From Altererythrobacter sp. (lineage in GTDB: Bacteria > Pseudomonadota > Alphaproteobacteria > Sphingomonadales > Sphingomonadaceae), in assembly GCA_031178065.1 (NCBI GenBank), contig JAPSJS010000016.1, positions 1 through 57,204 of the forward strand: a stretch of 57,204 bases of DNA, written 5' to 3'. Numbering within the stretch: position 1 is the stretch's first letter; each line of letters starts with the position of its first letter. Position numbers and translations under genes: made by a program. Positions 1 to 19,761 of this stretch are shown here, piece by piece. Below the pieces are notes generated by a model. That model saw only the letters and a program-made list of their open reading frames with translations, did no database searches and had not been told where the DNA came from.

Positions 1-1648
1 GCGTGCGCAGCGGCCCGTGCCATTCGGCGCCGGTGAGAAAATAGACGCCGTTCACCTTGATCAGCGCGTTGCCTTCGTAACCGACGTGATCGCCGTCGGT
101 GTCGACGAGCTGCCGCACCGGTCCCTCGAACCCGTCGCGCGCGGCATTGAGCTTGCCGATGTTGCCGCCGCCCCACAGGAAGTAGAGGCCGTCCTCGTCC
201 TCGAACGGGAAGCCGTCGATGCCGTCTACGAAATAGCCGTCGGTCACGTTCTCGTACGGACCGGCAGCGGTGCCGCTGGTCGAGCGGTAGAGCCAGGTCT
301 TTCCGCCGACTCCGCGCTCCATGACCGAGAAGGCGAGGTAGTAGGTCCGGTCGGCCTCGACCCAGCGGATCTCGGGCGCCCAGAGCTCGGCGACGCGGCC
401 GCCGAAGTCGTAGCCCATGTCCTGCCACTGCCAGACGGAGCCGCGATCCTCCCAGGTCTCGAGGTCCTGCGAGCGCCAGAGCTTCACTCCGCCCTCCGGC
501 CGGTGATAGCCATAGCCGCTGAGCGTGCCGACGAGATAGTAATAGCCGTCGTGGCCAAGCGTGACCGAGGGATCGCGCATCGTCTCGCTGGTGACGAGCG
601 GGCTGCGCGCGGCGACGGCGCTGTCCTCGGTCAGTATCGATGCCGCCTGGCGCAGCCGCCCGTCGGGCGCCGTTTCGAGCGGGACGAGACCGACCTGTTC
701 GCAGAACAGCGCGAAATCGTCGTCGCATTCGGGATTGTAGCTCGCCGCAGGGCGCCCGTCGTCGAGCGTCACGATCGAGCTTTGCCCGGCATGAGGGACC
801 GCCAGCATCCGCATCGAGAAGGGCCCGTAGGGCGTCGGCGCGGAGGCGAGGAACAGATCGTTGGTCGCCGTGCGCAGCCGGCCGGTGACTTCGCTCGCCG
901 CGAGCCAGTAATGGCCGTCATGCTTGAACATCGTCGCACCGCTGCGCCCGACGTGGGTGCGCACGGGCCAGTCCTTGCCCTCCGGTGGCGCCTCGGCGAA
1001 CAGCGCCTGATCGGGTTTCAGGAAGCGCGGCGCCTCGGCGAGCCGCGATAGATCAGGCGCGAGCTTCGCGATCCAGCCGCCGCCCCACAGCAGGTAGTGC
1101 GTGCCGTCGTCGACGAACAGCGAGACGTCGCTCGCGCCGTCGATCAGGCATGGGCTCGCGGCGAACGCGCCGTCGGGGGCGGCGACCTTGCCCGCGGCCA
1201 CGCGTGCGCAGCCCGTCTTGTCTGCGAACGCGAGATAGAGGGCGTCGCCCGCCACCGTGACCGACGGCGCCAGATAGCGCTCGGACGTGTCACCTGCACG
1301 GATGCCTTGTCCCGAGATCTTCGCCGGTCCATGCGCGGTCCAGTCGCGGCCGTTGCTGGACGTCCATAACGACACGCCATGGCGCGGGCCCGTGCGGAGC
1401 GTCGTTCCGGTCAGGAACCAGCGCCCATCCTCCGCCCGGGCAATCGAGGCGTCGCCGAGCGCGCGGTCGGAGAAGATCGGCTCGACCGGGCGCGCATCCG
1501 GGCCGGGCATCACGGTCGCGTTGCGGTCCATCGAGGGGTGGTCGAGGAAGATATCGTCAGCAACGGCGGGCTTGGCTGCGTCCTGCGCGGCGAGCGGCAC
1601 CGAGAGCATCACGGCGGCAAGCACCGGCGCGACCCAGTGTATCCTCAC
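1..1648 (-). CDS. tandem GH43-type glycoside hydrolase, secreted (3' end outside window)
   Basis: The reading frame starts at GTG 1648 and stays open to the window edge, so the C-terminus is missing. It begins with a signal peptide ending near PLAAQD. Two beta-propeller-like segments follow. The second has GH43 hallmarks: an SETMRDPSV blade, WAPEIRWVEADRTYYLAF and DGIDGFPFEDEDGLYFLWGG. The first has the related ERYLAPSVTV and HYLLWGGGW patterns. GH43 enzymes are five-bladed propellers that usually act on arabinose-, xylose- or galactose-containing chains. The start overlaps the sulfatase stop in a GTGA quartet, so the two are translationally coupled. Exact specificity cannot be read from sequence; the sulfatase and galactose-oxidation context suggests a side-chain or exo-acting enzyme on a galactan. 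Confidence 0.8.
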   Translation of the reverse strand, partial: MRIHWVAPVLAAVMLSVPLAAQDAAKPAVADDIFLDHPSMDRNATVMPGPDARPVEPIFSDRALGDASIARAEDGRWFLTGTTLRTGPRHGVSLWTSSNGRDWTAHGPAKISGQGIRAGDTSERYLAPSVTVAGDALYLAFADKTGCARVAAGKVAAPDGAFAASPCLIDGASDVSLFVDDGTHYLLWGGGWIAKLAPDLSRLAEAPRFLKPDQALFAEAPPEGKDWPVRTHVGRSGATMFKHDGHYWLAASEVTGRLRTATNDLFLASAPTPYGPFSMRMLAVPHAGQSSIVTLDDGRPAASYNPECDDDFALFCEQVGLVPLETAPDGRLRQAASILTEDSAVAARSPLVTSETMRDPSVTLGHDGYYYLVGTLSGYGYHRPEGGVKLWRSQDLETWEDRGSVWQWQDMGYDFGGRVAELWAPEIRWVEADRTYYLAFSVMERGVGGKTWLYRSTSGTAAGPYENVTDGYFVDGIDGFPFEDEDGLYFLWGGGNIGKLNAARDGFEGPVRQLVDTDGDHVGYEGNALIKVNGVYFLTGAEWHGPLRT

Positions 1649-3216
1649 TGCTCGCTCCCCTTGCGCAGGTCACGCAGATTGACCGATTTGGGCTTCGGCT
1701 GCGCATCGAGGATCGCGGCCAGCCGTGCCTCCACGTCGGGCATGGTCCCGGCCAGATTGCGCGTCTCGCCCGGATCGGCCTTCAGGTCGTAGAATTCGAC
1801 GTCGACCTGGCCCGTCTTCTCGTGCGTCCAGCGGACCAGCCGATAGCGTTCCGTCCGGATTGCCTGCCCGATGCGATTGGGACGGTTGAAGCTGTGATAG
1901 GCGAAATTCTGGAGCTGCGCGGGCCGGCCGAGCAGCACCGGCACGATGCTTTCGCCGTCGACGTGCTGCGCACCGCTCGGCATCGAAATGCCCGCAAGCT
2001 CAAGCAGCGTGGGATAGAGATCGACCGTCTCGACCACGTGATCCGGCGCCTGCGCCGCACCGCCGGTTCCCGGCCCGGCGAGGATCATCGCCTGGCGGAC
2101 CGCCTGCTCGTAATTGGTGTGCTTGGTCCACAGGCCGTGGTCGCCCAGATGATACCCGTGATCGCCCCACAGCACGACTATTGTGTCGTCCCGCAGCCCC
2201 TCGGCCTCGAGCGCGTCGAGCAGATAGCCGATCTGCGCGTCGACATAGCTGACCCCGGCATAATAGCCGTGCATCAGGCGCCGCTTCAGCGCCTCAGGGT
2301 AGTCCTTGCCCAGTCCTTCGGGGACCGGCTTGTACGCCACGATCTCGCCGCCCACCTTGCCTGCGAACTGCGGCGCGCCGTCGGGCAGAGCCTCATGTTC
2401 GGGCAAAGGCAGGCGCTGCGGATCGTAGAGGTCCCAGTACTTCTTCGGCACCGAGAACGGGAGGTGCGGGCGTGCGAACCCGACGGCAAGGAAGAAGGGC
2501 TCGTTCGCATCCCGGAGCCGGGCAAGCCGGCCGGCGGCGTGTCGGGCGACGCGGCCGTCGGCATAGGCATCGTCCGGGACATCCGGCGCCTCGAACGCCG
2601 CGCCGCGCGGCAGCGTGGCGGCATAGGCCCAGACGTCCTGCCCCTGGGGGACCGGCACTTCGTAGAACAGCGCCTCTTCGCGGGTCGGCTGGCCGCCGGT
2701 GCTTTCGCGCAGCAGGTATTCGACCACCTTGTCCTTGTGCGGCGCGATCGACCAGCTCGCGGGATCGTCGTCCGACCCGTGGCCGACGTGAAAGACCTTG
2801 CCGATCGCTTCGGTGTGATACCCAGCCTGCTTGAACCGCTCGGGCAGGGTCACTGCGTTCGGAATGTAGTCGCGCAGGTCCATTCCGAAGTCATAGATCC
2901 CGGTCGAGGTCGAGCGCGTGCCGGTCATCAGATTGATCCGGCTCGGCGCGCAGACGGCCTGATTGGCGTAGGCTCGTTCGAACCGCGTGCCGCGCGCCGC
3001 GAGCGCATCGATATTCGGGCTGATGGCATAGGGATCGCCGAACGCACCGAGGGCGGCCTTGAGATCGTCGACCAGGATGAAAAGGACGTTCGGACGTTCC
3101 TCCGCCTCTGCCGAGGGGGATGCCGCCGCCTGCGGCAACGTGGTCTGTGCGCAGCCGGCGAGAGCCGTGGCAGCCATCAGCCCGAGCGTGCGCCTTGCCC
3201 ACTTACAGGTATGCAT
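1645..3216 (-). CDS. sulfatase, iduronate-2-sulfatase-like, lipoprotein
   Basis: This 523-aa protein belongs to the type I (formylglycine) sulfatases. The start MHTCKW is chosen because GGGAGAGAG lies just upstream; an in-frame ATG 27 nt earlier has no ribosome site. The lipobox ATALAGC places the lipidated cysteine at residue 22, so the enzyme should be membrane-anchored facing the periplasm or outside. VDDL (D50, D51) supplies metal ligands and CAPSR (C89-R93) is the modification site, where cysteine becomes formylglycine. The stretch around QAVCAPSR and GKVFHVG resembles iduronate-2-sulfatases (S1_7-like). A later GDHGYHLGDHG block gives further metal-site residues. It lies 45 nt downstream of the gene for its probable activating enzyme. 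Confidence 0.92.
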   Translation of the reverse strand: MHTCKWARRTLGLMAATALAGCAQTTLPQAAASPSAEAEERPNVLFILVDDLKAALGAFGDPYAISPNIDALAARGTRFERAYANQAVCAPSRINLMTGTRSTSTGIYDFGMDLRDYIPNAVTLPERFKQAGYHTEAIGKVFHVGHGSDDDPASWSIAPHKDKVVEYLLRESTGGQPTREEALFYEVPVPQGQDVWAYAATLPRGAAFEAPDVPDDAYADGRVARHAAGRLARLRDANEPFFLAVGFARPHLPFSVPKKYWDLYDPQRLPLPEHEALPDGAPQFAGKVGGEIVAYKPVPEGLGKDYPEALKRRLMHGYYAGVSYVDAQIGYLLDALEAEGLRDDTIVVLWGDHGYHLGDHGLWTKHTNYEQAVRQAMILAGPGTGGAAQAPDHVVETVDLYPTLLELAGISMPSGAQHVDGESIVPVLLGRPAQLQNFAYHSFNRPNRIGQAIRTERYRLVRWTHEKTGQVDVEFYDLKADPGETRNLAGTMPDVEARLAAILDAQPKPKSVNLRDLRKGSEQ

Positions 3217-3261
3217 CAATTCTCTCTCCCGAAATTCCATCATTCCCCACCTGCCGACATG

Positions 3262-4308
<1,047 letters not shown>

Positions 4309-4333
4309 GGCTACCAGGCGGTCGGAGACCGCC

Positions 4334-5362
4334 TCAGTTCGGGAATGCCTTGACCAGCGCATCGTGCTGCGCGCGGCTGATCGGCAGCATCGAGCCGTGC
4401 CGGGCACCCGGGGTCATCTCGTAGCGGTTCCACTCGGGAATCCCCGAATTGCCCGAGACCTGATACCACGGCCCTTCCAGCCGCGGCGCCATCGAGAGGC
4501 CGTAGCTAGTCCCCGCATATTGCTCGTAATAGAGATACCAGTCCCCGCCGTCGGGCGAGCGGATCAGCGTCGGCGCCTCGCGGAAATTGGGGCTGAGCGG
4601 CGGGCCGGGCTCGGGGAACGGGCCGGTGAGCGTGGGGCCGCAGGTGATGCGAACCGTCTTGCCCGTGGTCCAGTTGTACGATGGGTAGCGCTCGTCCTTG
4701 ACGATGGCGCAATAACCGCCCGCCGGGTTGGGCTGCATGATCGTATCTATCGTCGCCATGTCCCAGGTGAAGAGCCGCTTCGGCGGCGCAGTGAAGGTCT
4801 TGAGATCCCTTGAGAGCGCGTAGAGCGTGCGCTGGCTGGCCCAGTAACGCTCCGGATCCTCGTCGCTGCCGGGCACGTTCGGGGTGTGCCACATCAGCAG
4901 GAACTGGCCGGACGGCTTGTCGAAGAACAGCTTGGGCGCGCCGATCCGCTGGAGCGCATGCGGATGGTTCTTCACCTTCGACAGATCGGGCTGATAGGTG
5001 CCGAACGGCTCCCAACGGATCAGATCGTCGGACACCCAGAAGCGGATCAGAGGATCGTCGTCGCTCTTGTTGCCGACGAGGTAATAGCGCCCGTCCGGCC
5101 CCTGCGCGATCGAGGCGTGGCCGTGGTAGTCGGAGGAGACCGGCTTTCCCTTGTTGAGGAAGGTCCAGTGCAACCCGTCCGTGCTGATCGAATAGTAGAG
5201 CGTGCCGTAGTCGCCCTTCATCATATGCGCGAAGAGATACGCCTTCTCGGACTCGGCGGCGGGCTTCGCCTCTTCCGCAGCCTGCGCGAGCGCTTGCCCC
5301 GCTCCGAGCACGAACAGCATCGGCGCGAGCGCGCGCAGAATCCCCTTCACCATCGATGTCAC
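4334..5362 (-). CDS. secreted GH43-like beta-propeller glycosidase
   Basis: This 342-aa protein has a signal peptide ending near QALAQA. The start is GTG 5362, preceded by GGGAGGAGG five bases upstream; an in-frame ATG 9 nt further in is less well placed. The body has repeated propeller strands such as YYSISTDGLHWTFL, SIAQGPDGRYYLVG, APKLFFDKPSGQFLLMWH and APTLIRSPDGGDWYLYYE, a pattern shared by GH43, GH117 and related five-bladed families. Substrate is unknown. GH117-type neoagarobiose hydrolase activity would fit a galactan locus, but I cannot separate the families by eye. It leads the transcript that also carries FGE, sulfatase and the tandem GH43. An AT-rich candidate operator sits 70-85 nt upstream. 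Confidence 0.72.
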   Translation of the reverse strand: MTSMVKGILRALAPMLFVLGAGQALAQAAEEAKPAAESEKAYLFAHMMKGDYGTLYYSISTDGLHWTFLNKGKPVSSDYHGHASIAQGPDGRYYLVGNKSDDDPLIRFWVSDDLIRWEPFGTYQPDLSKVKNHPHALQRIGAPKLFFDKPSGQFLLMWHTPNVPGSDEDPERYWASQRTLYALSRDLKTFTAPPKRLFTWDMATIDTIMQPNPAGGYCAIVKDERYPSYNWTTGKTVRITCGPTLTGPFPEPGPPLSPNFREAPTLIRSPDGGDWYLYYEQYAGTSYGLSMAPRLEGPWYQVSGNSGIPEWNRYEMTPGARHGSMLPISRAQHDALVKAFPN

Positions 5363-5432
5363 GCTAGCCTCCTCCCAGACACTTCGAGCTGATGCGGAAG
5401 TGCCGCATTCTCGGAATGGCGGAAGAGTATCA

Positions 5433-5446
5433 TTAATCTGATAAAT
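5433..5446 (-). promoter_or_regulatory. candidate shared operator, site A (upstream of 5362 gene)
   Basis: Read on the minus strand this is ATTTATCAGATTAA, centred on ATC-A-GAT. An overlapping plus-strand view shows TATCA-N6-TGATA (5428-5443). It lies in the 105-nt gap between the KDPGal aldolase stop and the GH43-like start. It shares 13 of 14 bases with the site at 15988. A GntR-type repressor from this locus is the natural candidate to bind it. Confidence 0.45.
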
Positions 5447-5467
5447 AACAACCCGGCATGTGCGGGA

Positions 5468-6109
5468 TCAGGTCGCGCCTTCAGGCTTTGCGGCCGCGAC
5501 GAAGCGTGCAGCGCGTTCCCGGATCTCGGGGAGAGTCACGCCCGGCGCGTAGAGCGCCGACCCGATGCCGAAGCCGGACGCGCCGGCCGCTTTCCAGGGA
5601 TCCATTCCTTCAGGCGTAACGCCTCCCACCACCAGCACCGGCAGCGACGGTGGCAGCACCGCCCGCTGCGCCTTCAGCACTTTGGGCGAGGCCGCCTCGG
5701 CGGGGAACAGCTTGAGCGCATGCGCTCCCGCCCGAGCGGCTGCGAAGGCTTCGCTGGGCGTGAAGTAGCCGGGCAGCGAGACGAGGCCTGCTTCGACCGT
5801 GGCGGCGATCACCGAAACGTCCGTATTGGGGGATACGATCAGCTCGCCGCCAGCGTCGCGCACCCGGGAGACTTGGTCCGGGCCAGTCACGGTCCCTGCC
5901 CCCGCCATCGCAGCGCCATCGAGCCGGCGGGCGAGCCGCGCGATGCTGTCGAACGGATCGGGCGAGTTGAGCGGCACTTCGATCAGCGTGAATCCGGCCT
6001 CTGCCAGAGCCTCACCCACGCCCTCGACCTCGTCGGGCCGGACGCCGCGCAGGATCGCGACGAGGGGGCATTTCGCAAAAGCGTTCCGGAATCTCGTATC
6101 CACACTCAT
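5468..6109 (-). CDS. dgoA: 2-dehydro-3-deoxy-6-phosphogalactonate aldolase
   Basis: This is a 213-aa class I aldolase of the KDPG/KDPGal family. It splits 2-keto-3-deoxy-6-phosphogalactonate into pyruvate and glyceraldehyde 3-phosphate, the last step of oxidative galactose catabolism. Visible family motifs are VAILRGVRPDE, TLIEVPLNSPDP, GAGTVTG, VSPNTD and the Schiff-base lysine in ALKLFPAE. VVGGVTPE and GIGSALY form the phosphate-binding end. ILRGVRP with IEVPLNSP is typical of the galactonate rather than the gluconate branch. The start ATG 6109 overlaps the DgoK stop in an ATGA quartet; longer upstream extensions are out-of-phase readings of dgoK. Kinase and aldolase are therefore coupled. 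Confidence 0.93.
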   Translation of the reverse strand: MSVDTRFRNAFAKCPLVAILRGVRPDEVEGVGEALAEAGFTLIEVPLNSPDPFDSIARLARRLDGAAMAGAGTVTGPDQVSRVRDAGGELIVSPNTDVSVIAATVEAGLVSLPGYFTPSEAFAAARAGAHALKLFPAEAASPKVLKAQRAVLPPSLPVLVVGGVTPEGMDPWKAAGASGFGIGSALYAPGVTLPEIRERAARFVAAAKPEGAT

Positions 6110-6975
6110 TCCACCAAATCCCAAATTAGCCGGATGCCGGCGGCGAACGCGGCGTGGCTGTCGACGATCGTGGCCTCGCCGCCGAACGCGGCGACCGCGC
6201 GCGCGTAGAGCCGGCCGAGCTCTGGCCCGGCGAGGATGAAGGGGCTCGCGCCCGCGGCATGCGCGGCGACGTCCGCGCCGATCAGCAGGCCGCTGGCGTA
6301 GGACGCCGATTCCTCGCGTGGCCGCTTGCGCAGCAGCACGTCCGCCCGCACCCCGAACAAGTGCGCCAGCAGGTCGGGCGAACGCGCCCGCTCGACACCG
6401 GCGAGGAAGGCCGCATCGTCTTCGGCAGCACGGTCGATCTGGCCGGCGAGCAGGCTGTGATCCTTCAAGAGGGCGAACATCTCGCCGGTGATGGCGGTGG
6501 TGAAACGGGTGATCGCACCGTCGGCGACATGAGCCCATTTGCAGTGAGTGCCGGGCTGCGCGAGGAGCGCGGTCGAGGGTACCTGTCCGGCCGCCACGGC
6601 GCCGAGGAACTGCACTTCCTCGCCGCGCATGGTGTCTGCACGGCCCTCGCCTTCGAATGAAAGCCCGGGGACAATCGCGGTGCGGCCCGGCTCGACCCAG
6701 CGCAGCGCCGCGGCCAGATCCTCGACCCGGGCCGGGCACGGCACATATCCCGCATCGGCCCATCCCCGATCCGAGCCGACCATGCCCGCGCACAGCATCG
6801 GCAGGTCGCCGAGCCGCTGCCGGATCGCCGCCGCCTCGCCCACAAACCCGTCGCGCCCGACCTTGACGACCCCTCGGTCGTCCCGCTCGGTGTGCTCCAC
6901 CGCGCCGTCCTCGCCGATGACGAACACGCGTCGGTTGGTGGTGCCCCAGTCGACCGCGAGGAAGCGCCCCTTCAT
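6106..6975 (-). CDS. dgoK: 2-dehydro-3-deoxygalactonokinase
   Basis: This 289-aa cytosolic kinase phosphorylates 2-keto-3-deoxygalactonate at C6 with ATP. The N-terminal FLAVDWGTTNRRVFVI is the DgoK family signature (an ASKHA-type phosphate-1 loop). AGMVGSDRGW, VPGLSFEG, MRGEEVQFLGA and PGTHCKWAHV are further conserved blocks. The length fits the family (about 290 aa). It starts 10 nt after the symporter stop and overlaps the aldolase start, so symporter, dgoK and dgoA look like one operon. The same enzyme would serve any route that yields KDGal, including one starting from galactonate itself. Confidence 0.93.
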   Translation of the reverse strand: MKGRFLAVDWGTTNRRVFVIGEDGAVEHTERDDRGVVKVGRDGFVGEAAAIRQRLGDLPMLCAGMVGSDRGWADAGYVPCPARVEDLAAALRWVEPGRTAIVPGLSFEGEGRADTMRGEEVQFLGAVAAGQVPSTALLAQPGTHCKWAHVADGAITRFTTAITGEMFALLKDHSLLAGQIDRAAEDDAAFLAGVERARSPDLLAHLFGVRADVLLRKRPREESASYASGLLIGADVAAHAAGASPFILAGPELGRLYARAVAAFGGEATIVDSHAAFAAGIRLIWDLVE

Positions 6976-6985
6976 CGCCGGCCGC

Positions 6986-8644: not shown

Positions 8645-8714
8645 ACTCGCCTCCCGTCCCGAACTCTTGTGTTCTGCCGTGCCCATACGATAATGCGCAA
8701 GCAGCAGATGGTCT

Positions 8715-8728: not shown

Positions 8729-8806
8729 TAGGACTTGTCCAGCGGCCACGTGCCTGCCTATATGCGGTGCAATGGACCGGGACATTATGAGGAGGATAGC
8801 GGCCTG

Positions 8807-9547
8807 ATGACGGCGATGGACCCGGCAGAAGTGCGTACGCAGCTTGGCCGCAACCTTACCTACGGCATGCTCGATACCCTCGGGCGCGCCATCGTCATCG
8901 GCAGCTATCAGGACCGCGTATTCCCGACCGAGGCCGAACTGGCCAAGGAATACGGCGTAAGCCGCTCGGTCACGCGCGAGGCGGTGAAGATGCTGACCGC
9001 CAAGGGGCTGCTGAGCGCCCGCCCGCGGCAGGGCACGATCATCCAGCCGGCCACATCGTGGAACCTGTTCGATACCGACGTGCTGCGCTGGCTGCTCGAG
9101 CGCAAGTTCTCGGTCGAGCTGCTGCGGCACTTCAACCAGCTTCGCGTCGCGATCGAACCCGAAGCGGCGGCGCTTGCGGCCACATATGCGGAGCCGTCCG
9201 ACCTCGAGGCGATCGATGCCGGGCTCAAGCGGATGCGCGCGGCCGAACAGGGGAACGACGATACGCTCGATGCCGACATCGCTTTCCACGTCGCCGTGCT
9301 GCGCGCCTCCGCCAACCCGTTCTACGCGCAGTTCCGCGACGTCGTCTCGACCGCGCTGCGGACCTCGATCCGCTTCACCAACCGGATCAAGGGCCGCTCC
9401 GCCAGCGTCGACGATCACGCCGCCGTCCGCGACGCGATCGCGGCGCGCAAGCCCGATGCCGCGCGCAAGGCGATGAAGCGGCTGATCGGCGACGTGCTCG
9501 AACTCATCGAAACCGCCGACGACGAGCCGGAGCGGCTGGCCGACTGA
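8807..9547 (+). CDS. GntR/FadR-subfamily transcriptional regulator
   Basis: This 246-aa regulator has an N-terminal winged helix-turn-helix (residues ~15-85; FPTEAELAKEYGVSRSVTREAVKML, read in overlapping pieces, ending GLLSARPRQGTII) and a C-terminal all-helical FCD ligand domain. The FCD metal-site residues are visible in DADIAFHVAVLRAS and DDHAAVRDAI. The family includes DgoR, UxuR and ExuR, which sense sugar acids. ATG 8807 is chosen because GGAGG precedes it and it aligns with the family N-terminus; an upstream in-frame ATG has no ribosome site. It is divergent from the symporter gene, and its likely effector is galactonate or KDGal (inference). It probably represses the promoters carrying the AT-rich motif. 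Confidence 0.88.
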   Translation: MTAMDPAEVRTQLGRNLTYGMLDTLGRAIVIGSYQDRVFPTEAELAKEYGVSRSVTREAVKMLTAKGLLSARPRQGTIIQPATSWNLFDTDVLRWLLERKFSVELLRHFNQLRVAIEPEAAALAATYAEPSDLEAIDAGLKRMRAAEQGNDDTLDADIAFHVAVLRASANPFYAQFRDVVSTALRTSIRFTNRIKGRSASVDDHAAVRDAIAARKPDAARKAMKRLIGDVLELIETADDEPERLAD

Positions 9548-9559
9548 TCGGCCCTTCGG

Positions 9560-10588
9560 TCACTCGCTGGCGCCCGGCGGCGCGAGCGCAGTATCGCCGG
9601 CGGCAGGCTCCCCGAATACGGGCGCACCCTCGCTGTCCCATTCGAACCGCTGAATCCGCGGCGACCGCTTGCTCGTGCATTGCATGTCCGGCCCGGGATT
9701 GGCGTGATAGATGATCCAGTTCTCGCGGCCGTCAGCGGCCGTGAAGAAGCCGTTGTGCCCCGGCGCATAGACGCCGTTCTCCGGTGATTTTCGGAAGACC
9801 GGCTCCGGCGACTTGGTCCAGGCGGACGGATCGAGCGGGTCGCTTCCCGCAGGCGCCGAGAGCAGGCCGAGGGCATAGTCGTCGGACCAGCAGGCGCTGG
9901 CCGAATAGCTGAGGAACAAGTCGCCGTCCGGGCCGAGCAGGAACTCGGGACCTTCGAGGATCTGGCGCCCGCCCTGCTTTTCCCAGGCGTGTTCCGGGCG
10001 GGCGATGATCGCCTCCTCACCCTCCAGCGTCCACGGGTCCGCCATGCGCGCGATCGCGAGCACGCTATCCGGCCCCACGTAGGGTGAGTAGACGAAGTAG
10101 CGCTCGCCCTCGTACACGAAGGTCGTGCCGTCGATGCCGCTGTAGCGGGTGTTCACCTGCCCCCGGTCGATCCAGGTGCCGGTGGTCGGATCCTCCGCGC
10201 CGTTCTCCAGCACGAACACGCCGCGATGCGCGTCGTTGTCCTGCCCGCTCGCGGCCGCCGTGTAGTAGACGTACCACTTGCCGTCGATGCGGTGCAGCTC
10301 CGGCGCCCAGATCGAAATCGCGTTGGGGCCGGTCGCGGGCGGGCGCCAGATCACCGTGGGCGATGCTTCGGCGAGCCGGGCCATGTCGCGCGTCTTGCGC
10401 ATCTCCAGCCGGTCTCCGCTGGTGTGCATGTAGTAGAACACGCCCTCATGTTCGGTCACCCAGGGATCGGGGCCGGAAGGCAGGAGGGGATTGGTGAACG
10501 TGCGGGGTGCGGCGGTCGCGCAGGCCGCGAGCAGACCGCAGGCCGCGAGGGTCAGCCACCTGGCGCGGCGCTTCTTCGGATCGGACAT
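9560..10588 (-). CDS. GH43 glycoside hydrolase, lipoprotein
   Basis: This 342-aa protein starts at ATG 10588 (GGAGGAAG upstream). A basic N-terminus and lipobox ACGLLAACA mark it as lipidated. GH43 features are clear: FTNPLLPSGPDPWV with the catalytic aspartate, IWAPELHRIDGKWYVYYTA, SGIDGTTFVYEGERYFVYS, and ILEGPEFLLGPDG with the probable acid glutamate. The GH43 family contains arabinofuranosidases, xylosidases and exo-beta-1,3-galactanases. This one most resembles the arabinofuranosidase-like groups, but no subfamily claim is safe. It lies 110 nt downstream of the TBDT gene behind a hairpin, and converges with the GntR gene at a 12-nt gap. Confidence 0.88.
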   Translation of the reverse strand: MSDPKKRRARWLTLAACGLLAACATAAPRTFTNPLLPSGPDPWVTEHEGVFYYMHTSGDRLEMRKTRDMARLAEASPTVIWRPPATGPNAISIWAPELHRIDGKWYVYYTAAASGQDNDAHRGVFVLENGAEDPTTGTWIDRGQVNTRYSGIDGTTFVYEGERYFVYSPYVGPDSVLAIARMADPWTLEGEEAIIARPEHAWEKQGGRQILEGPEFLLGPDGDLFLSYSASACWSDDYALGLLSAPAGSDPLDPSAWTKSPEPVFRKSPENGVYAPGHNGFFTAADGRENWIIYHANPGPDMQCTSKRSPRIQRFEWDSEGAPVFGEPAAGDTALAPPGASE

Positions 10589-10672: not shown

Positions 10673-10698
10673 GTTCAGGGAATCGGGAAGCCGCGGCG

Positions 10699-13431: not shown

Positions 13432-13507
13432 GATGTTCTCCCCATACCGCGTGGCGGTGTCCCGGTTTTCCGGTGTTGCGCCAATCGTAACGCGGCCGCA
13501 ATAGTCT

Positions 13508-13524
13508 TACAAGTAGTATTTGTA
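13508..13524 (+). promoter_or_regulatory. inverted repeat TACAA-N7-TTGTA upstream of TBDT
   Basis: A 5-bp perfect inverted repeat with a 7-nt spacer lies about 77-93 nt upstream of the TBDT start codon, in an AT-rich patch containing TAGTATAAT. Its spacing suits a dimeric repressor. The binding protein is unknown. It differs from the motif at the other promoters in this locus. Confidence 0.3.
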
Positions 13525-13535
13525 GTATAATTGAC

Positions 13536-13561
13536 GGCGGGCGCAGGTCACCTGCCCCGCC
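13536..13561 (-). terminator. GC-rich hairpin downstream of GH-A gene
   Basis: The arms GGCGGG(C)GCAGG and CCTGCCCCGCC pair with a single bulge around a short loop, just past the GH-A stop. On the minus strand the sequence after it is GTCAATTATACTAC, which is AT-rich but without a T run. It probably ends the epimerase/GH-A transcript. Confidence 0.4.
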
Positions 13562-13574
13562 GCCTCGACCGACC

Positions 13575-14741
13575 TCAGTCTGCGGCGCTGATCGCCGGCT
13601 GCGTCGGAGTCGGAGGCACGACACCCTTGGGCGCCGCGGCGAGCCGCTTGATCAGATCGACCTCGGCCTGCCTATAAGGCGTGCCGTCCGTGTGAAGCAC
13701 GTCGTGGAACCAGATCGTCGGTTCGTCATACGTGTACGGCTTCTTCCAGCTGTCCCACGGCAGGCGGGTCTGCGATTCCCCGTCGACGAAGCCCCAGTTG
13801 TACATCGCGATATTGAGGCGCTTGGCGATCGGCAGCGATCCGTCGAAAGTCGAGCCGTTGCCGCGGGCCATGTACTCGGTGCACAGGACCGGCCGGCCGT
13901 AGCTCAGCATCTGCTGCGCTCGCTGCTCGAACTGCTCGGGCCAGTTGTAGTCGTGGAAGCTCATCACGTCGGATTCGGCGAGCTGGATCTTCTCGACCGC
14001 GTCGCGCTTCTCCATCCGGTGCCAGTCTTCGCCGATCCACAGGCCGCTGGTCAGCGGCTGGGTGGGGTCGGCGCTGCGCGCCCATTCGAAGACGTCGTCG
14101 AGCAGCCCCGCGACCATTTCCTTCTTGTTCGGCGTGGGCTCGTAATTGCCGCCGCCCTCGTTGTTCGGCTCGTTCCAGACGTCCCATGCCAAGATGCGCT
14201 CGTCGTTGGCGAAATGCCCGACGATATCCTTCACGTAGCCTTCCAGCTTGTGATGCTGGCTCTTGTCCGCAAGCCGCTCGGCCCCGGGCGCCTGGACCCA
14301 GCCGGAGTTGTGGACGCCCGGAATCGGCGGGTGCTGCGCACCGGCAACCGGATGGGGATCCCAGCAGCTGTCGAACAGCACGAACATCGGCCGGATGCCG
14401 TGCTTGGCGGCGATGGTCAGGAACTGGTCCATCCGCTGCTTGAGGCCTTCGGGATCGTTCTCCCACAGCAGGTTGTGCAGATAGACCCGCATGGTGTTCA
14501 TGCCGAGATCCGCCGCCCAGCCGAGTTCCTTGTCGATCGTCGCAGGATCGAAGGTTTCGGCCTGCCACATGTCGAGCTGGTTGATCGCAGTCGCCGGATT
14601 GTAGTTCGCGCCGACGAGCCACGGCTGCTCTTCGTACCAGTCGTTGGCTTCCTGCTTGGTCCACATCTCGCGTGCCTGCGCGGGCGCGGTCATTGCGACG
14701 ACCGAAACGGCCGCGAAGAACAGGGTCATCGAACGCTTCAT
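13575..14741 (-). CDS. secreted clan GH-A (GH5-like) glycoside hydrolase
   Basis: This 388-aa protein has a signal peptide ending MTAPAQARE and ATG 14741 preceded by GGGAGG. It has a TIM-barrel hydrolase layout: LVGANYNPATAINQLDMW, GMNTMRVYLHNLLWE, ILAWDVWNEPNNE (acid/base glutamate in WNEP) and RPVLCTEYMARG (nucleophile glutamate on strand 7). Homologues are often labelled cellulase-family or 1,4-beta-xylanase, labels that are not backed by biochemistry I can name. In this locus it could be an endo- or exo-acting enzyme on a galactose- or arabinose-containing chain. It lies 35 nt downstream of the aldose epimerase gene and is probably cotranscribed with it. Confidence 0.82.
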   Translation of the reverse strand: MKRSMTLFFAAVSVVAMTAPAQAREMWTKQEANDWYEEQPWLVGANYNPATAINQLDMWQAETFDPATIDKELGWAADLGMNTMRVYLHNLLWENDPEGLKQRMDQFLTIAAKHGIRPMFVLFDSCWDPHPVAGAQHPPIPGVHNSGWVQAPGAERLADKSQHHKLEGYVKDIVGHFANDERILAWDVWNEPNNEGGGNYEPTPNKKEMVAGLLDDVFEWARSADPTQPLTSGLWIGEDWHRMEKRDAVEKIQLAESDVMSFHDYNWPEQFEQRAQQMLSYGRPVLCTEYMARGNGSTFDGSLPIAKRLNIAMYNWGFVDGESQTRLPWDSWKKPYTYDEPTIWFHDVLHTDGTPYRQAEVDLIKRLAAAPKGVVPPTPTQPAISAAD

Positions 14742-14776
14742 TGAAACCTCCCGTATTGTTCTGTGCAGCGCGTGTA

Positions 14777-15934
14777 TCAGCGCGCCGCTTTGGCCTGCCC
14801 GCTCGACAGGCGGTAAATCATGACGTTGCGATAGGTCTCGCCCGGCTCGAGCCGCCCGGATCCGAACGTCGACTGGTTGGGCGTATCGGGGAAGAGCTGC
14901 GGCTCGAGCACGATGGTATCGCCCTGCCGGTAGATGCCCTTCGACTTGCCCGCGATCGTGCCGTCGAGGAAGTTGCCCGAGTAGAATTGCAGACCCGGCT
15001 GGTTGGACCAGAGCTCGAAGCTGCGGCCCGAAACCGGCTCCTCGACCCGCGCCATCAGGCGCGGCTCGGCTGACACGGTTTTCCCGACGACGAAGTTGTG
15101 ATCGTAGCCGCGGCCGTAGACGATCTGCTGATCGCTTGCGTCGCGGACGCGCTCGCCCACCGCATGCGGTTCGCGGAAATCGAACACCGTGCCGTCCACC
15201 CGGCGGAATTCACCGGTGGGGATCAGCGTCTCGTCGACCGGGGTATAGTGATCCGCCGGAATGGTGAGCACGTGGCCCATGGCACTGCCCGCACCTTCGC
15301 CGAGCAGGTTCCAGTAGGCGTGATTGCTGATGTTGACGATCGTCGGCTCGTCGGTCGTTGCGCGATACTCGATCGTAAGCGCATTCGCTTCATCGAGCGA
15401 GTAAATCGCGAACACGGTCAGTTCGCCCGGATAGCCCTGATCGCCGTCGGGGCTGACATAACGCAGGGTGACTTTGGCGGCCGGCCCGTCTTCCACCGAG
15501 ACGACCTCCCATAGCACCTTGTCGAACCCTGCTGTGCCGCCGTGTAGCGAATTGGGGCCGTTGTTGACCGGCGTCTCGTACGTCTTGCCGTCGAGCGTGA
15601 AGCGCCCCTTGGCGATCCGGTTCGCGAAGCGGCCGACGGTCGCGCCGAAGTATTCGGGCTTGGTCAGATAGCCTTCGAGCGTAGGATAGCCGAGCTGGAC
15701 ATCCGCCTTCTCGCCGTTGCGGTCGGGCATGATCAGCGACTGGAGCGTCGCGCCCAGGCTGATCACGGTCGCCGACACACCCTGGCCGTTCGACAGAGTC
15801 ACCGCAGTGACCTGGCGCCCGTCAGGCAGTGTGCCGAAGCTTTCCTGCGATGCGGTCGCGGCGAGTGCTGCATTCGGCATGCCCATCGCGATCGCCGCCG
15901 CCGCAAGCGCGGCTGCCTTTGCCTTAAGCGTCAT
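14777..15934 (-). CDS. galM: aldose 1-epimerase, exported
   Basis: This 385-aa mutarotase has an N-terminal signal sequence (to about ALAATAS), so it probably acts in the periplasm. Family motifs are LGATLQSLIMPDRNG, GATVGRFANRIAKG, NNGPNSLHGG (catalytic-region histidine), ISNHAYWNL (second histidine) and the final LEPQLFPDTPNQ glutamate segment. It interconverts the alpha and beta forms of aldoses such as galactose, supplying the anomer needed by the transporter or 1-dehydrogenase. The start has a strong AGGAGGGAG site. A copy of the AT-rich motif lies about 55-67 nt upstream, suggesting the gene is induced with the rest of the pathway. Confidence 0.92.
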   Translation of the reverse strand: MTLKAKAAALAAAAIAMGMPNAALAATASQESFGTLPDGRQVTAVTLSNGQGVSATVISLGATLQSLIMPDRNGEKADVQLGYPTLEGYLTKPEYFGATVGRFANRIAKGRFTLDGKTYETPVNNGPNSLHGGTAGFDKVLWEVVSVEDGPAAKVTLRYVSPDGDQGYPGELTVFAIYSLDEANALTIEYRATTDEPTIVNISNHAYWNLLGEGAGSAMGHVLTIPADHYTPVDETLIPTGEFRRVDGTVFDFREPHAVGERVRDASDQQIVYGRGYDHNFVVGKTVSAEPRLMARVEEPVSGRSFELWSNQPGLQFYSGNFLDGTIAGKSKGIYRQGDTIVLEPQLFPDTPNQSTFGSGRLEPGETYRNVMIYRLSSGQAKAAR

Positions 15935-15987
15935 CTTCTCCCTCCTGATGCGAACCGTAACAACGGCCTTCTATCGAGTAAAGCAGT

Positions 15988-16001
15988 TTAATATGATAAA
16001 T
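15988..16001 (-). promoter_or_regulatory. candidate shared operator, site D (upstream of galM)
   Basis: On the minus strand this reads ATTTATCATATTAA, in the 70-nt gap between galM and the lactonase stop. It differs from site A at a single base. The GATAAAT core is strikingly AT-rich against the surrounding high-GC sequence. Confidence 0.45.
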
Positions 16002-16004
16002 GCA

Positions 16005-16862
16005 CTAACCCGCGTATTTGTGAGGCGCAAAGCCGCGCCGCCCGGTTTCGACTTCGAACAGGGCACCCCCGTGCTCCTCCGTTACGCCGTCCGCAGCGGA
16101 GGTGACGAACATCCGGTCGAGCGCGTGGCCGGCGAAGGCGCAGCTCGTGATCTGCGATGCAGGCAGCTCGACCGCTTCGTCGGGCCGGCCATCTGGCGAG
16201 AAGCGCAGCACCCGCGACGCGCCCCAGCACGCGACCCAGAGGCCGCCATCGCTGTCGAAGGTCATGCCGTCGGGCGTTCCCCATCCGCTCTCGAATTCGA
16301 CGAACAGCTCCCGCTCGCCCAGCACGCCCTCGGCGTCCACGGGGAAGCGATAAATCAGGCCGAGCCCGCTGTCGGTATGATAGATCCAGTCGCCATCCGG
16401 CGCGATCGCGGGGCCGTTGGCGATGCGATAACCGCTGTCGACCCGCGCAACGCTGCGGTCCGGATCGAGCCTATAGAATGCGCCGTCCGGCCGGTCAGCG
16501 GTTACCGGCATGGTCCCCGCCCAAATACGCCCGTCCGCGTCGGCCTTCGCGTCGTTCAACCGATTGTCGGGCATATGGGGTTCCGGATCGACGATCGGGT
16601 TCACCTGCAGCGGATCGAGCGAAAGTTCGGCAAACCCGTTTTGCAGGCCCGCGATGAAGCCGGGCCGCTCGCGTCGCTCGATCACCCAGCCGATCATTTC
16701 GGGAACCGGCCATTCCTCGACCGCGCCATCGTCCAGCGACAGGCGGTTGAGCCGCCGCCCGAGAATGTCGACCCAGAACAGCGAATTGGCGCCAGGCGAC
16801 CACAACGGCCCTTCGCCCAACTGGTCGCGGCGTGCGCGGTCGATGACGCGAAGGCGGGTCAA
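16005..16862 (-). CDS. SMP-30/gluconolactonase family sugar lactonase
   Basis: This 285-aa six-bladed propeller hydrolase probably opens the aldonolactone made by the sugar 1-dehydrogenase. Metal-site residues of SMP-30 proteins are visible: the glutamate in LGEGPLWSP, the asparagine in [17 protein letters not shown], a later asparagine in [12 protein letters not shown], and the aspartate in [15 protein letters not shown]. No signal peptide, so cytosolic. The start is a TTG at 16862 whose last two bases overlap the dehydratase stop (TTGA), so the two genes are coupled; a longer reading into the dehydratase gene is out of phase with any sensible N-terminus. Whether galactono-, arabino- or xylonolactone is preferred cannot be read from the sequence. 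Confidence 0.88.
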
Positions 16863-18655
16863 TGGCTGTCGCGCGGCATGCCCTTGGCCGCGATCCGCTG
16901 ATACTTGACCGCCGGCTCGAGCACGGCGCCCCCGTCGAACTGACCCACGATCCCGCGCTGAATCTCCTGCCAGGGAGTCTGTGAATCCACGATGCCATAG
17001 CCGCCAGCCGCTTCCAGTGCGGTTCGGCGGCGGGTCAGTTCGATATCGTCGACGAGCATGTTCACCTCGCGCCGTTTCAGGTCGACTCGAATGATGTCGC
17101 CTGTTTGGAGAAGCGCAATACCGCCCCCCGCCGCCGCTTCGGGCGAGGCGTTGAGGATCGATGGTGAGCCGGACGTGCCAGACTGGCGTCCGTCGCCGAT
17201 ACACGGCAGCGCTTCCACCCCGGCGCGGATCAATGACGCCGGCGGCCGCATGTTCACTACCTCGGCACCGCCGGGAAACCCGATCGGGCCGGTGCCGCGA
17301 ATGACCATGATCGTCCGGTCGTCGAGACCGAGTGCGGGGTCATCGATCTTCGCATGGTAGTCCTCCGGGCCGTCGAATACGACCGCGCGTGCTTCGAAAG
17401 CGTCAGGATCGTCCGGATCGGACAAGTAGTGCGCCCGGAACCAGTCCGAGATGACGCTGGTCTTCATCACCGCGGTATCGAACAGGTTGCCGCGCAGCAC
17501 CGTGAGGCCCGCGGCCGGCTTGAGGGGCGCTGCGAAGCGGCGGATGACCCGTTCGTCTTCAGGCTCGGCGTCGCAGTTGTTCTCCGCGATCGTGCGACCA
17601 TTGGCCGTCAGCGCCTCGCCGAAGATCAGGTCGGCCCTGAGCAATTCGCCGATCACTGCGGGCACGCCGCCCGCGCGGTAGAAATCTTCGCCGAGATATT
17701 CACCCGCCGGCTGCAGATTGACCAGCAGCGGGATCTCGGCCCCGTGCCGCTCCCAGTCGTCGAGCGACAGCTCGACCCCGACGTGCCGCGCGATCGCGTT
17801 CAGGTGGATCGGCGCGTTGGTCGACCCACCCAGCGCCGAGTTGACGCGGATCGCGTTGAGGAAGGCCTCACGCGTGAGGATGTCCGACGGCTTGCGGTCC
17901 GCGGCAACCATCTCGACCGCACGCCGCCCCGTTTCCCATGCACACTGCTGCCGGTCCCGATGGGGCGCCGGAATCGCCGCGGAGCCGGGGAGCGCCATCC
18001 CCAGCGCCTCGGTCAGCGAGTTCATCGTCGTCGCCGTGCCCATCGTATTGCAGAAGCCGGTCGACGGGGCGGAGGACGCGACCAGCTTGATGAAACCCTT
18101 GTAGTCGATCTCGCCCGCGGCGAGCATCTCGCGCGCCTTCCAGATGATCGTGCCCGAACCGACGCGCTCGCCCTTGTGCCAGCCATTGAGCATCGGTCCG
18201 ACCGAAAGCGCGATCGCCGGAATGTCCACGGTCGCGGCAGCCATCAGGCAGGCCGGCGTGGTCTTGTCGCAGCCGATCGTCAGCACCACGCCGTCGATCG
18301 GATAGCCGTGGAGAACCTCGACCAGGCTCAGATAAGCCAGATTGCGATCGAGCCCGGCCGTCGGACGCTTGCCGGTTTCCTGAATGGGATGGACCGGAAA
18401 CTCCAGCGGAATGCCGCCGGCGTCGCGGATCCCTTCCTTCACCCGCTCCGCCAATACGACGTGATGGCGGTTGCACGGCGTCAGATCGCTGCCCGTCTGG
18501 GCAATGCCGATGATCGGGCGATCCGACTGCAGTTCTTCGAGCGAGAGTCCGTAGTTCAGATAACGCTCGATATAGAGCGCCGTCATGTCGGGATTTTCCG
18601 GATTGTCGAACCACGCGCGGGAACGAAGACGCGGGCGATCTTCACCTGCGCTCAT
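16859..18655 (-). CDS. IlvD/Edd-family sugar-acid dehydratase (galactonate/arabonate/xylonate type)
   Basis: This 598-aa Fe-S dehydratase is close to the D-xylonate and L-arabonate dehydratase branch. Matching blocks include [80 protein letters not shown] and [20 protein letters not shown]. The cluster cysteines appear in [13 protein letters not shown] and GFCNTMGT. It converts an aldonate to its 2-keto-3-deoxy form. With DgoK and DgoA nearby and no DgoD-type enolase seen, it probably acts on galactonate, but xylonate or arabonate cannot be excluded. The start ATG 18655 lacks its own ribosome site and overlaps the stop of a 14-codon leader frame in an ATGA quartet. Confidence 0.9.
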
Positions 18656-18696
18656 TGCGGCGCCGTCCGCTGAAATCCGTGTCCGAGCCAGGTCAT
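18652..18696 (-). promoter_or_regulatory. candidate 14-codon leader ORF coupled to the dehydratase
   Basis: An ATG at 18696 has an excellent ribosome site (GGAGGGGGA directly before it) and encodes [14 protein letters not shown] followed by TGA. That stop overlaps the dehydratase ATG as ATGA. The dehydratase itself has no good ribosome site, so ribosomes loading on the leader could reinitiate there. Alternatively the dehydratase starts upstream in its own frame and the leader is chance. Confidence 0.4.
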
Positions 18697-18784
18697 TCCC
18701 CCTCCAATCGATCGGCCGCGTCGGATACGCCAGCCGGTATGCACCCGGGTTGATTACCAAGCCGGTTTGAATTTATAAAGCGTA

Positions 18785-18798
18785 TATATCCGATAAAT
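18785..18798 (-). promoter_or_regulatory. candidate shared operator, site E (dehydratase/dehydrogenase divergent promoter)
   Basis: On the minus strand this reads ATTTATCGGATATA, with the symmetric core ATC-G-GAT. It sits between the leader/dehydratase (minus) and the sugar dehydrogenase (plus), about 19 nt before the dehydrogenase ATG. A second ATTTAT lies at 18771-18776, forming a wider inverted repeat. Binding here could block both directions at once. Confidence 0.45.
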
Positions 18799-18816
18799 CA
18801 GGGAAGGAAAGAACCG

Positions 18817-19761
18817 ATGCGGAACGACGGCGATGGGGGAGCGCCCATACGGCTGGCGCTCGTCGGCATCGGCAAGATCGCACGGGATCAACATATCCCC
18901 GCGCTGCAGACCAACGGATCGTTCGACCTGGTGGCGGCAGTTAGCAGAAGCGGCGGAATTGAGAACCTCCCCTGCTTCACCGACATCGGCGACCTGCTCG
19001 AGAGCGGCCTCGAAGTGGATGCGGTATCGCTCGCGACGCCGCCTCAGGGCCGCCACGCGATCGCCAGCGCCGCGCTGAACGCGGGGCTTCACGTCATGCT
19101 GGAGAAGCCGCCAGCCGCCACGGTGAGCGAGGTTGCCGATCTTGCGGCACGCGCGCGCGCTGCCGGTGTGGCGCTCTTCGCGACATGGCATTCGCGGGAG
19201 GCGGCCTCGGTCGACGCGGCGCGCGACTGGCTGGTGGGCAAGACGCTCCATTCTGCGAGGATTGATTGGCGGGAAGACATCCGCGTCTGGCATCCGGGGC
19301 AGGAATGGATTCTCCAGCCCGGCGGGCTCGGCGTGTTCGATCCCGGCATTAATGCCCTGTCGATCGCGACCGCCATCCTTTCGCAACCCCTGCTGCTCCA
19401 GTCGGCACGGCTCGAATTTCCCGCCAACCGCCAGGCGCCGATCGCCGCCCAGCTTTCGCTTCGCAGCGGCGGTGCACCGGTCGAGGCCGCGTTCGACTTT
19501 CTGCAAACGGGTCCACAATCGTGGGACATCGTGCTGGAGACCGATTCCGGCCGCCTCGTCCTGTCGGACGGCGGCCAGCGGCTCGCGATCGACGGCGTCG
19601 AAGTCTCGGCCGGCGCCAACGAGGAGTATCCGCGTCTCTATCGCCGCTTCGCCTCGCTCGTTCGGGAAAGTGCCAGCGACGTCGACCTCGCCCCCCTGCA
19701 ACTTGTCGCCGATGCATTCCTCCTTGGCGACCGCAACGAGGCGTCCCCGTTCAGCTTCTGA
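18817..19761 (+). CDS. Gfo/Idh/MocA-family aldose 1-dehydrogenase (galactose/arabinose type)
   Basis: This 314-aa NAD(P)-dependent oxidoreductase probably oxidises D-galactose (or L-arabinose) at C1 to the lactone. The N-terminal Rossmann signature is IRLALVGIGKIARDQHIPAL; ATPPQGRHAIA and the EKPPAAT motif with the catalytic-region lysine follow. FATWHSREAASVDAARDWL, WREDIRVWHPGQEWI and GGLGVFDPGINALSI match the galactose 1-dehydrogenase group known from Pseudomonas and the L-arabinose dehydrogenase of Azospirillum. AAGGAAAG precedes the ATG. It is divergent from the dehydratase-lactonase pair, sharing a 120-nt control region with site E. Galactose and arabinose have the same C1-C4 stereochemistry here, so both may be substrates. 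Confidence 0.88.
   Translation: MRNDGDGGAPIRLALVGIGKIARDQHIPALQTNGSFDLVAAVSRSGGIENLPCFTDIGDLLESGLEVDAVSLATPPQGRHAIASAALNAGLHVMLEKPPAATVSEVADLAARARAAGVALFATWHSREAASVDAARDWLVGKTLHSARIDWREDIRVWHPGQEWILQPGGLGVFDPGINALSIATAILSQPLLLQSARLEFPANRQAPIAAQLSLRSGGAPVEAAFDFLQTGPQSWDIVLETDSGRLVLSDGGQRLAIDGVEVSAGANEEYPRLYRRFASLVRESASDVDLAPLQLVADAFLLGDRNEASPFSF

What the first reader, a model, noticed from the sequence alone, without database searches (positions are those of the whole stretch)
1..19761. Candidate locus for a sulfated galactose-rich glycan with a complete oxidative galactose pathway
Seen: sulfatase plus FGE, three GH43-type proteins, a GH-A enzyme, TBDT, galM and SGLT symporter, together with sugar 1-dehydrogenase, SMP-30 lactonase, IlvD/Edd dehydratase, dgoK and dgoA, which cover every step from an aldose to pyruvate and glyceraldehyde 3-phosphate. 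Known: DgoK/DgoA serve KDGal and KDPGal from galactose. Inference: the polymer is a sulfated galactan or arabinogalactan. I know of no described locus with just this combination.
Basis: partly seen in the sequence, partly recalled or inferred. Interest (0 to 1): 0.72.

Follow-up and report, generated by a model that had tools for sequence, protein, structure and literature searches.

The report
Sulfated arabinogalactan and galactose utilization locus
A bacterium of the genus Pelagerythrobacter carries one gene set, apparently under common control, that seems to take up an arabinose- and galactose-containing polysaccharide, trim off sulfate and arabinose, and use the galactose by an oxidative route; it is a new combination of known parts rather than a new kind of system.

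Summary
Window 1-19761 carries every gene named, including a complete De Ley-Doudoroff route (by homology). No galactokinase domain was found in the genome. The 12-gene core (GH-A enzyme, two GH43s, TBDT, GalM, symporter, GntR, DgoK, DgoA, lactonase, dehydratase, dehydrogenase) is whole in three of six congeners and recurs in part elsewhere. Partner enzymes there are arabinan-type, and some related loci carry a DgoD-type galactonate dehydratase where no IlvD/Edd was found. Best reading: an arabinogalactan-type glycan; the locus shows no carrageenan, agar or porphyran enzyme. The sulfatase, FGE and two-domain GH43 are a variable end module: none in two congeners, FGE alone in a third, whose sulfatase and GH43 orthologues sit in a separate multi-sulfatase locus. 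Still, a close sulfatase relative is in 5 of 397 family genomes, all 5 among the 41 with the GH-A enzyme, and a palindrome shared with the galactose genes lies at the promoter of the inferred sulfatase operon in 4 of 6 loci. "Sulfated" is thus supported, but variable. The GH-A enzyme's activity and the fate of arabinose are unknown. A sulfatase locus with oxidative galactose genes is already described for carrageenan.

The parts
2..1648 (-). GH43a, two GH43 domains, cut by the contig end; last ~80 codons on contig C29:1-375
   Evidence: PF04616 125.6 bits; C29 end overlap; 89.5% orthologue in G003 close to a sulfatase orthologue
1645..3243 (-). S1 sulfatase with CAPSR motif, lipobox-like signal by eye; S1_7-like
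   Evidence: PF00884 162.5 bits; best PDB 6hhm 303.6 bits, listed as P18_S1_7 in PMC9096561; CAPS invariant in 6 of 6, CAPSR in 5 of 6
3262..4308 (-). formylglycine-generating enzyme (FGE), start chosen at 4308
   Evidence: PF03781 240.6 bits on the longer frame 3262-4407; C310 and C315 invariant in 6 of 6
4334..5362 (-). GH43b, divergent GH43-like enzyme conserved with the core
   Evidence: PF04616 22.3 bits, below cut-off 32.2; NF052546 40.6 bits, cut-off 500; in 12 of 80 related loci
5430..5449 (.). palindrome 1 (putative operator), upstream of the inferred GH43b-FGE-sulfatase-GH43a operon
   Evidence: score 33.5; found at the same place in G001, G003, G004
5468..6106 (-). dgoA, 2-dehydro-3-deoxy-6-phosphogalactonate aldolase
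   Evidence: NF006600 PRK09140 270.9 bits, cut-off 207
6106..6975 (-). dgoK, 2-keto-3-deoxygalactonate kinase
   Evidence: PF05035 274 bits
6986..8686 (-). sodium:solute (SGLT-type) sugar symporter
   Evidence: PF00474 194.5 bits
8713..8732 (.). palindrome 2, between symporter-dgoK-dgoA and GntR
   Evidence: score 31.4
8807..9547 (+). GntR/FCD regulator, start chosen at 8807
   Evidence: PF07729 85 bits, PF00392 44.5 bits
9560..10588 (-). GH43c, exo-arabinofuranosidase-like; start chosen at 10588
   Evidence: PF04616 191.5 bits; PDB 9nxj 236.5, 3akf 226.1, 5m8e 201.1 bits
10699..13431 (-). TonB-dependent transporter
   Evidence: PF00593 144.6 bits, PF07715 55.4 bits
13575..14741 (-). GHA, clan GH-A-like enzyme of unknown activity (candidate acid/base E191, nucleophile E289)
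   Evidence: PF00150 35.4 bits, PF00331 33.2 bits; E191 and E289 invariant in 49 of 49 aligned relatives
14777..15934 (-). galM aldose 1-epimerase, signal peptide by eye
   Evidence: PF01263 307.8 bits
15985..16004 (.). palindrome 3, upstream of galM
   Evidence: score 27.6
16005..16868 (-). SMP-30 type lactonase
   Evidence: PF08450 260.1 bits on the longer frame 16005-17204
16859..18655 (-). IlvD/Edd sugar-acid (probably galactonate) dehydratase, start chosen at 18655
   Evidence: PF00920 348.2 bits; NF009560 1009 bits, cut-off 684; PDB 7m3k 1007.8 bits
18782..18801 (.). palindrome 4, between dehydratase and dehydrogenase
   Evidence: score 28.7
18817..19761 (+). D-galactose (or L-arabinose) 1-dehydrogenase
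   Evidence: PF01408 65.2 bits; PDB 4ew6 356.7 bits, 6jnj 314.8 bits

Best explanation
A polysaccharide utilization locus for an arabinose- and galactose-containing glycan (arabinogalactan type), here with an added module for a sulfated form. The TBDT brings oligosaccharides into the periplasm. Secreted GH43s and the GH-A enzyme release arabinose and galactose, while the FGE-activated S1_7-like sulfatase removes sulfate that would block them. Periplasmic GalM equilibrates the anomers and the sodium symporter imports galactose. In the cytoplasm galactose 1-dehydrogenase, lactonase, IlvD/Edd dehydratase, DgoK and DgoA give pyruvate and glyceraldehyde 3-phosphate. A GntR/FCD regulator acting on an ATTTAT-ATAAAT palindrome controls the symporter-dgoK-dgoA, galM, dehydrogenase/dehydratase and GH43b-FGE-sulfatase-GH43a units. 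Shown: gene content, conservation, palindrome pattern, no galactokinase domain found. Inferred: compartments, substrate specificities, operons, that GntR binds the palindrome, and that the sulfate sits on this same glycan.
For: Complete pathway by homology. No galactokinase (PF10509: 0 matches; found in 10 of 14 control genomes). An enolase-type dehydratase family is in 8 of 80 GHA loci (six Rhodanobacteraceae, one Lysobacter, one Sphingomonas), none of which showed IlvD; the three members scanned, all Rhodanobacteraceae, hit PRK14017 galactonate dehydratase at 663.6-690.2 bits, cut-off 311. Arabinan enzymes: GH43c; a second GH43 family in 28 of 80 loci, one member tested, like endo-arabinanase 1wl7 (264.5 bits); a GH93-type family in 8 of 80, one member tested (3a71, 131.4 bits). 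Sulfatase relatives (E 1e-100) in 5 of 397 genomes, all 5 within the 41 with GHA, hypergeometric 9.35e-6; by genus 4 of 4 within 17 of 96, 7.2e-4. Palindrome (score 17 or more): 4 sites in the locus, 0 in the other 37.4 kb, 0 in 20 shuffles; 57 sites in 25 other loci with a GntR homologue over 50%, against 1, 0, 1 in shuffles. It lies at the promoter of the inferred sulfatase operon in 4 of 6 loci: G000, G003, G236, L099.
Against: Three congeners have the core without sulfatase or GH43a at the locus. In G003 these orthologues sit in a separate locus of several sulfatases. No galactan-cleaving enzyme of known family is in the locus; GHA's activity is unknown. Neither of two arabinose routes looked for was found (no AraA domain; one DHDPS-family gene). 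The co-occurrence test is not corrected for phylogeny or for general richness in sugar genes. The palindrome was first seen by eye in the window and the score threshold chosen by me, so the window count is not independent; the sites in G003 (19.5) and L099 (18.4) score well below the training minimum (27.6); G076 has no site at its sulfatase and G210 none; 19 sites also occur in 54 loci without such a GntR (shuffles 9, 5, 4) and one lies inside a TBDT gene on C29.
Confidence: 0.55

Rival explanations
1. The core is an arabinogalactan or pectic side-chain system and the sulfatase module is only a neighbour that acts on another glycan.
For: G001, G003 and G004 lack sulfatase and GH43a at the locus; G003 holds them in a separate multi-sulfatase locus.
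Against: Tightly packed four genes (gaps of 25 and 18 bases and a 4-base overlap with the starts I chose) behind a shared palindrome; 5 of 5 sulfatase genomes carry GHA; the palindrome also stands at sulfatase promoters in G003, G236 and L099, though not in G076 or G210.
Confidence: 0.25
2. The polymer is mainly arabinan and the sugar oxidised is L-arabinose: dehydrogenase, lactonase and dehydratase make L-2-keto-3-deoxyarabonate, which DgoK and DgoA homologues phosphorylate and cleave. That would be an arabinose route I know no description of (recalled; not searched).
For: The dehydrogenase resembles L-arabinose 1-dehydrogenase almost as well; partner hydrolases are arabinan-type; no AraA domain and one DHDPS-family gene.
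Against: DgoD-type galactonate dehydratase in related loci and DgoA over its cut-off; the window dehydratase stays under the L-arabinonate dehydratase cut-off (512.6 of 882 bits).
Confidence: 0.1
3. The glycan holds beta-D-galactofuranose, and GHA is an exo-galactofuranosidase like GH5_13 GlfH1.
For: Weak GH5 match; GlfH1 is a GH5_13 exo-beta-D-galactofuranosidase (PMC10115798, passages); alpha-L-Araf and beta-D-Galf are alike in shape (recalled).
Against: Nothing direct; membership of GHA in GH5_13 could not be tested.
Confidence: 0.15
4. A sulfated red-algal galactan (carrageenan, agar, porphyran).
For: Sulfatases with oxidative galactose genes occur in a carrageenan locus; a listed S1_7 enzyme acts on carrageenan galactose-4-sulfate.
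Against: No carrageenase, agarase, porphyranase or anhydrogalactosidase hit in the locus; arabinan-type partners in related loci.
Confidence: 0.04

Closest known systems
Pseudoalteromonas carrageenovora 9T PUL 7 (PMC6262041, passages only)
   Same: S1 sulfatases, TBDTs, galactonate dehydratase, lactonase, KDGal kinase and aldolase in one locus; a GntR galactonate repressor is named in the legend of the figure comparing such loci
   Different: Carrageenases and anhydrogalactose enzymes; Leloir route also in the genome; galactose dehydrogenase on the chromosome; GH43 and GHA not mentioned in the passages seen
Maribacter sp. MAR_2009_72 arabinogalactan PULs (PMC11036162, abstract and passages)
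   Same: Marine arabinogalactan use with GH43 arabinofuranosidases, including GH43_26, TonB-type uptake and galactose mutarotase
   Different: SusC/D, arabinose isomerase route, GH105; [quoted passage not shown]
De Ley-Doudoroff galactose pathway (dgo genes)
   Same: All five steps present by homology
   Different: IlvD/Edd dehydratase and Gfo/Idh/MocA dehydrogenase, linked to a polysaccharide locus
S1_7 sulfatase P18_S1_7 of Formosa agariphila (6HHM)
   Same: Best solved relative of the window sulfatase
   Different: Acts on ulvan xylose-2-sulfate; specificity here unknown

Membership tests
De Ley-Doudoroff pathway | galactose dehydrogenase, lactonase, galactonate dehydratase, KDGal kinase, KDPGal aldolase | tested here: met
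   by homology only
De Ley-Doudoroff pathway | activity on galactose rather than arabinose | not testable with these tools
   indirect: DgoD in related loci, no galactokinase domain
TonB-type polysaccharide utilization locus | TBDT, hydrolases, inner-membrane sugar transporter and regulator, co-localised | tested here: met
   secretion of the hydrolases judged by eye only
Sus-type PUL of Bacteroidota | SusD partner | tested here: not met
   no SusD hit among the locus genes scanned
Arabinogalactan utilization locus | arabinofuranosidases plus galactan-cleaving enzymes | tested here: inconclusive
   arabinofuranosidase-like GH43c; no known galactanase, GHA unassigned
Type I formylglycine sulfatase | C-x-P-S-R motif and an FGE with paired cysteines | tested here: met
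   window CAPSR; CAPSR in 5 of 6 relatives, CAPSQ in G076; FGE cysteines 6 of 6. Their catalytic role is recalled
S1_7 sulfatase subfamily | SulfAtlas clade membership | tested here: inconclusive
   nearest PDB chains 6hhm and iduronate-2-sulfatase; SulfAtlas not available
GH5_13 | clade membership with GlfH1 | not testable with these tools
Carrageenan or agar PUL | GH16, GH82, GH50, GH86, GH117, GH127 or GH129 in the locus | tested here: not met
   none among Pfam hits of the locus genes

The most novel reading that the evidence does not exclude
A single GntR regulon couples a movable S1_7-like sulfatase-FGE-GH43 module to an arabinogalactan core with oxidative galactose use, built round a widespread GH-A enzyme without assigned activity that releases galactose (pyranose or furanose) from arabinogalactans in Pseudomonadota, Acidobacteriota and Bacteroidota. 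This would be a first genetic system for sulfated arabinogalactans such as those of green algae.
Probability: 0.3. Interest if true: 0.6.

Novelty: new variant of a known kind. Interest (0 to 1): 0.45.

Why it matters
Arabinogalactans turn over fast in the sea (PMC11036162, abstract). For sulfated ones, which occur in Codium fragile (PMC3093253, passage), one search of the held library (sulfated arabinogalactan, sulfatase, degradation) listed 2 papers, neither by its title or abstract start about degradation genes. The shared palindrome and the co-occurrence give a testable regulon.

Tried and rejected
Sulfated red-algal galactan: no matching enzyme in the locus. Xylan or glycosaminoglycan: a weak GH10 match within GHA and the sulfatase's second-best solved relatives, iduronate-2-sulfatases, are the only pointers; no lyase hit in the locus. 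A FadR-like T-GT-AC-A operator: one site only near the intergenic stretches, 8 in the window, dropped. NCBIfam gave no family for GHA, phmmer only weak GH10 chains. Paper searches: a sphingomonad arabinogalactan/galactonate locus, 0 papers; De Ley-Doudoroff plus sulfatase plus polysaccharide utilization, 1 paper. Of the GH5_13 papers listed (9) I read passages of three.

Rows dropped: the sulfatase column counts 3 loci, but only L099 (61%) is close; L095 and L146 matched at 25-40%. L091 is the congener G004 and was left out of the palindrome count. The ORF caller missed dgoA in G001 and G004 and SMP30 in G001 through overlapping frames; tblastn found them. Counts come from my own ORF caller on loci of unequal length (some end near GHA), so they are lower bounds.
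Full report
What is there. The window is one whole contig (C48) of a 3.17 Mb draft genome of 108 contigs, 99.99% complete by the tool's table. The GH43 at the contig edge ends on contig C29, 375 bases in, after which the flank shared with G001 and G003 begins.

The sugar route. Dehydrogenase, lactonase, IlvD/Edd dehydratase, DgoK and DgoA make the full De Ley-Doudoroff route by homology. The dehydrogenase is closest to a chain titled D-galactose-1-dehydrogenase and nearly as close to L-arabinose 1-dehydrogenase, so it alone does not decide the sugar. Three things point to galactose. DgoA passes the PRK09140 cut-off. The dehydratase is closest to a chain titled Galactonate dehydratase, then to another IlvD/Edd family chain (7m3k, 5oyn), and stays under the L-arabinonate dehydratase cut-off. 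And 8 of 80 GHA loci, none with IlvD, carry an enolase-type dehydratase family beside GHA, galM, a TBDT and dgoK or dgoA; the three members scanned pass the galactonate dehydratase cut-off twofold. The genome shows no galactokinase domain, no arabinose isomerase domain and one DHDPS-family gene; other routes were not looked for.

The polymer. GH43c is closest to solved arabinofuranosidases. Among 80 named GHA loci (the best 80 of 593 confirmed), within up to 10 kb and by blastp against window genes at E 1e-8, galM is found in 46, a TBDT in 46, GntR in 34, GH43c-type in 28, SSS in 24, dgoK in 22, IlvD in 20, GalDH in 17, dgoA in 15, SMP30 in 13, GH43b in 12. A further GH43 family in 28 loci has a member like endo-arabinanase, and a family in 8 loci a member like GH93 exo-arabinanase; I tested one member of each. 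One GHA locus (G210) adds a GH2. Arabinose plus galactose suggests an arabinogalactan or pectic side chain. GHA has E191 and E289 invariant in 49 of 49 sequences, as expected of clan GH-A (recalled), but no assigned activity. A GH5_13 galactofuranosidase relation is a lead from reading, not tested.

The sulfated part. All 12 core genes are at the corresponding place in G001, G003 and G004 (78-99% identity), with no sulfatase or GH43a there by tblastn. The order is flank-GH43b (G001), no FGE before GH43b (G004), flank-FGE-GH43b (G003), flank-GH43a-sulfatase-FGE-GH43b (window). G003 holds orthologues of GH43a (89.5%) and the sulfatase (88.5%) close together in another locus with a TBDT, further sulfatases and another FGE. 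So the module is gained, lost or moved. It is still tied to the core in two ways. First, a close sulfatase relative (E 1e-100) is in 5 of 397 family genomes and GH43a (E 1e-60) in 4 of 397; all of these have GHA, which is in 41 of 397 (three draws of 397 that I take to be the same set). Two of the five are one genus, so the genus count (4 of 4 among 17 of 96) is the fairer figure. Second, the palindrome.

The palindrome. I noticed a shared AT-rich palindrome in four intergenic stretches. A pattern scan gave 7 matches, six of them at these four sites (two sites match on both strands) and one elsewhere at 27830, against 0.46 expected, largest of 100 shuffles 4. All four sites recur at the corresponding places in G001, G003 and G004, which are close relatives. 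A score built from those 16 sites, at a threshold of 17 that I chose, finds 57 sites in 25 other GHA loci with a GntR homologue over 50%, 21 of 25 loci having at least one, against 1, 0 and 1 in shuffled copies; in the 54 other loci there are 19 sites in 11 loci against 9, 5 and 4. At a laxer threshold of 9, 133 of 167 rows (both strands counted) in the GntR-bearing loci lie outside my gene calls: between GntR and SSS, between GalDH and IlvD, before galM and TBDT, and near the starts of GH43b and GH43c, in sphingomonads and in Steroidobacter relatives alike. In the sulfatase loci a site stands before the GH43b-FGE-sulfatase-GH43a genes (window), in the divergent TBDT/sulfatase stretch of G003 (19.5), between GHA and the sulfatase in G236 (23.6), and between sulfatase and FGE in L099 (18.4); none at the sulfatase of G076, none in the two G210 stretches. 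One site lies inside a TBDT gene on C29, so the score is not perfect.

How it works, most likely. Uptake by TBDT, periplasmic trimming by GH43s, GHA and sulfatase, GalM, sodium symport of galactose, oxidation to pyruvate and glyceraldehyde 3-phosphate, with GntR relieved by a pathway acid. Signal peptides and lipoprotein motifs were judged by eye, not predicted by a program.

What is known. [quoted passage not shown] The S1_7 enzymes in the table passage of PMC9096561 act on ulvan xylose-2-sulfate and on carrageenan galactose-4-sulfate. Sulfated arabinogalactan occurs in Codium fragile (PMC3093253, passage). GH43_22 for BAD_1527, the nearest NCBIfam model of GH43b, is from a title and abstract start (PMC11264647, listing). 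So this is a new combination, not a new kind. The fate of the arabinose is unexplained.

Noticed in passing
L177:7256-18320 and L178:702-3375 (G003:C2:253-268 kb): A multi-sulfatase locus in a congener: GH43a, several S1 sulfatases, TBDT and FGE, with the palindrome in its divergent promoter stretch.
   Followed up: partly
window 4334-5362: GH43b and most sphingomonad relatives read GHASI or GHPSI where the two Flavobacterium relatives read GHPDI, so the usual GH43 base position (recalled) may be altered; TID and EAP are kept.
   Followed up: no
L070:3228-4589: The G076 sulfatase relative reads CAPSQ instead of CAPSR and its frame lacks the N-terminal part; it may be inactive or its start miscalled.
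   Followed up: no
window 3262-4308: The FGE has a lipoprotein-like signal by eye, which would suggest sulfatase activation outside the cytoplasm.
   Followed up: no
L172:8049-9116: A 37% GHA relative sits on E. coli plasmids (17 Escherichia among 42 plasmid records with a match); in the one looked at it lies between IS elements, near a LacI gene.
   Followed up: no
L171:9824-11020: A 54% GHA relative lies among ribosomal protein genes on a record called a Tsukamurella plasmid.
   Followed up: no
window 23797-32488: PhoD-type phosphatase, metallo-beta-lactamase-fold protein and a large TBDT with a FecR gene: a second uptake cluster in the window.
   Followed up: no
genome G000: Arabinofuranosidase-like enzyme but no arabinose isomerase domain and only one DHDPS-family gene: neither of the two arabinose routes looked for was found.
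   Followed up: partly
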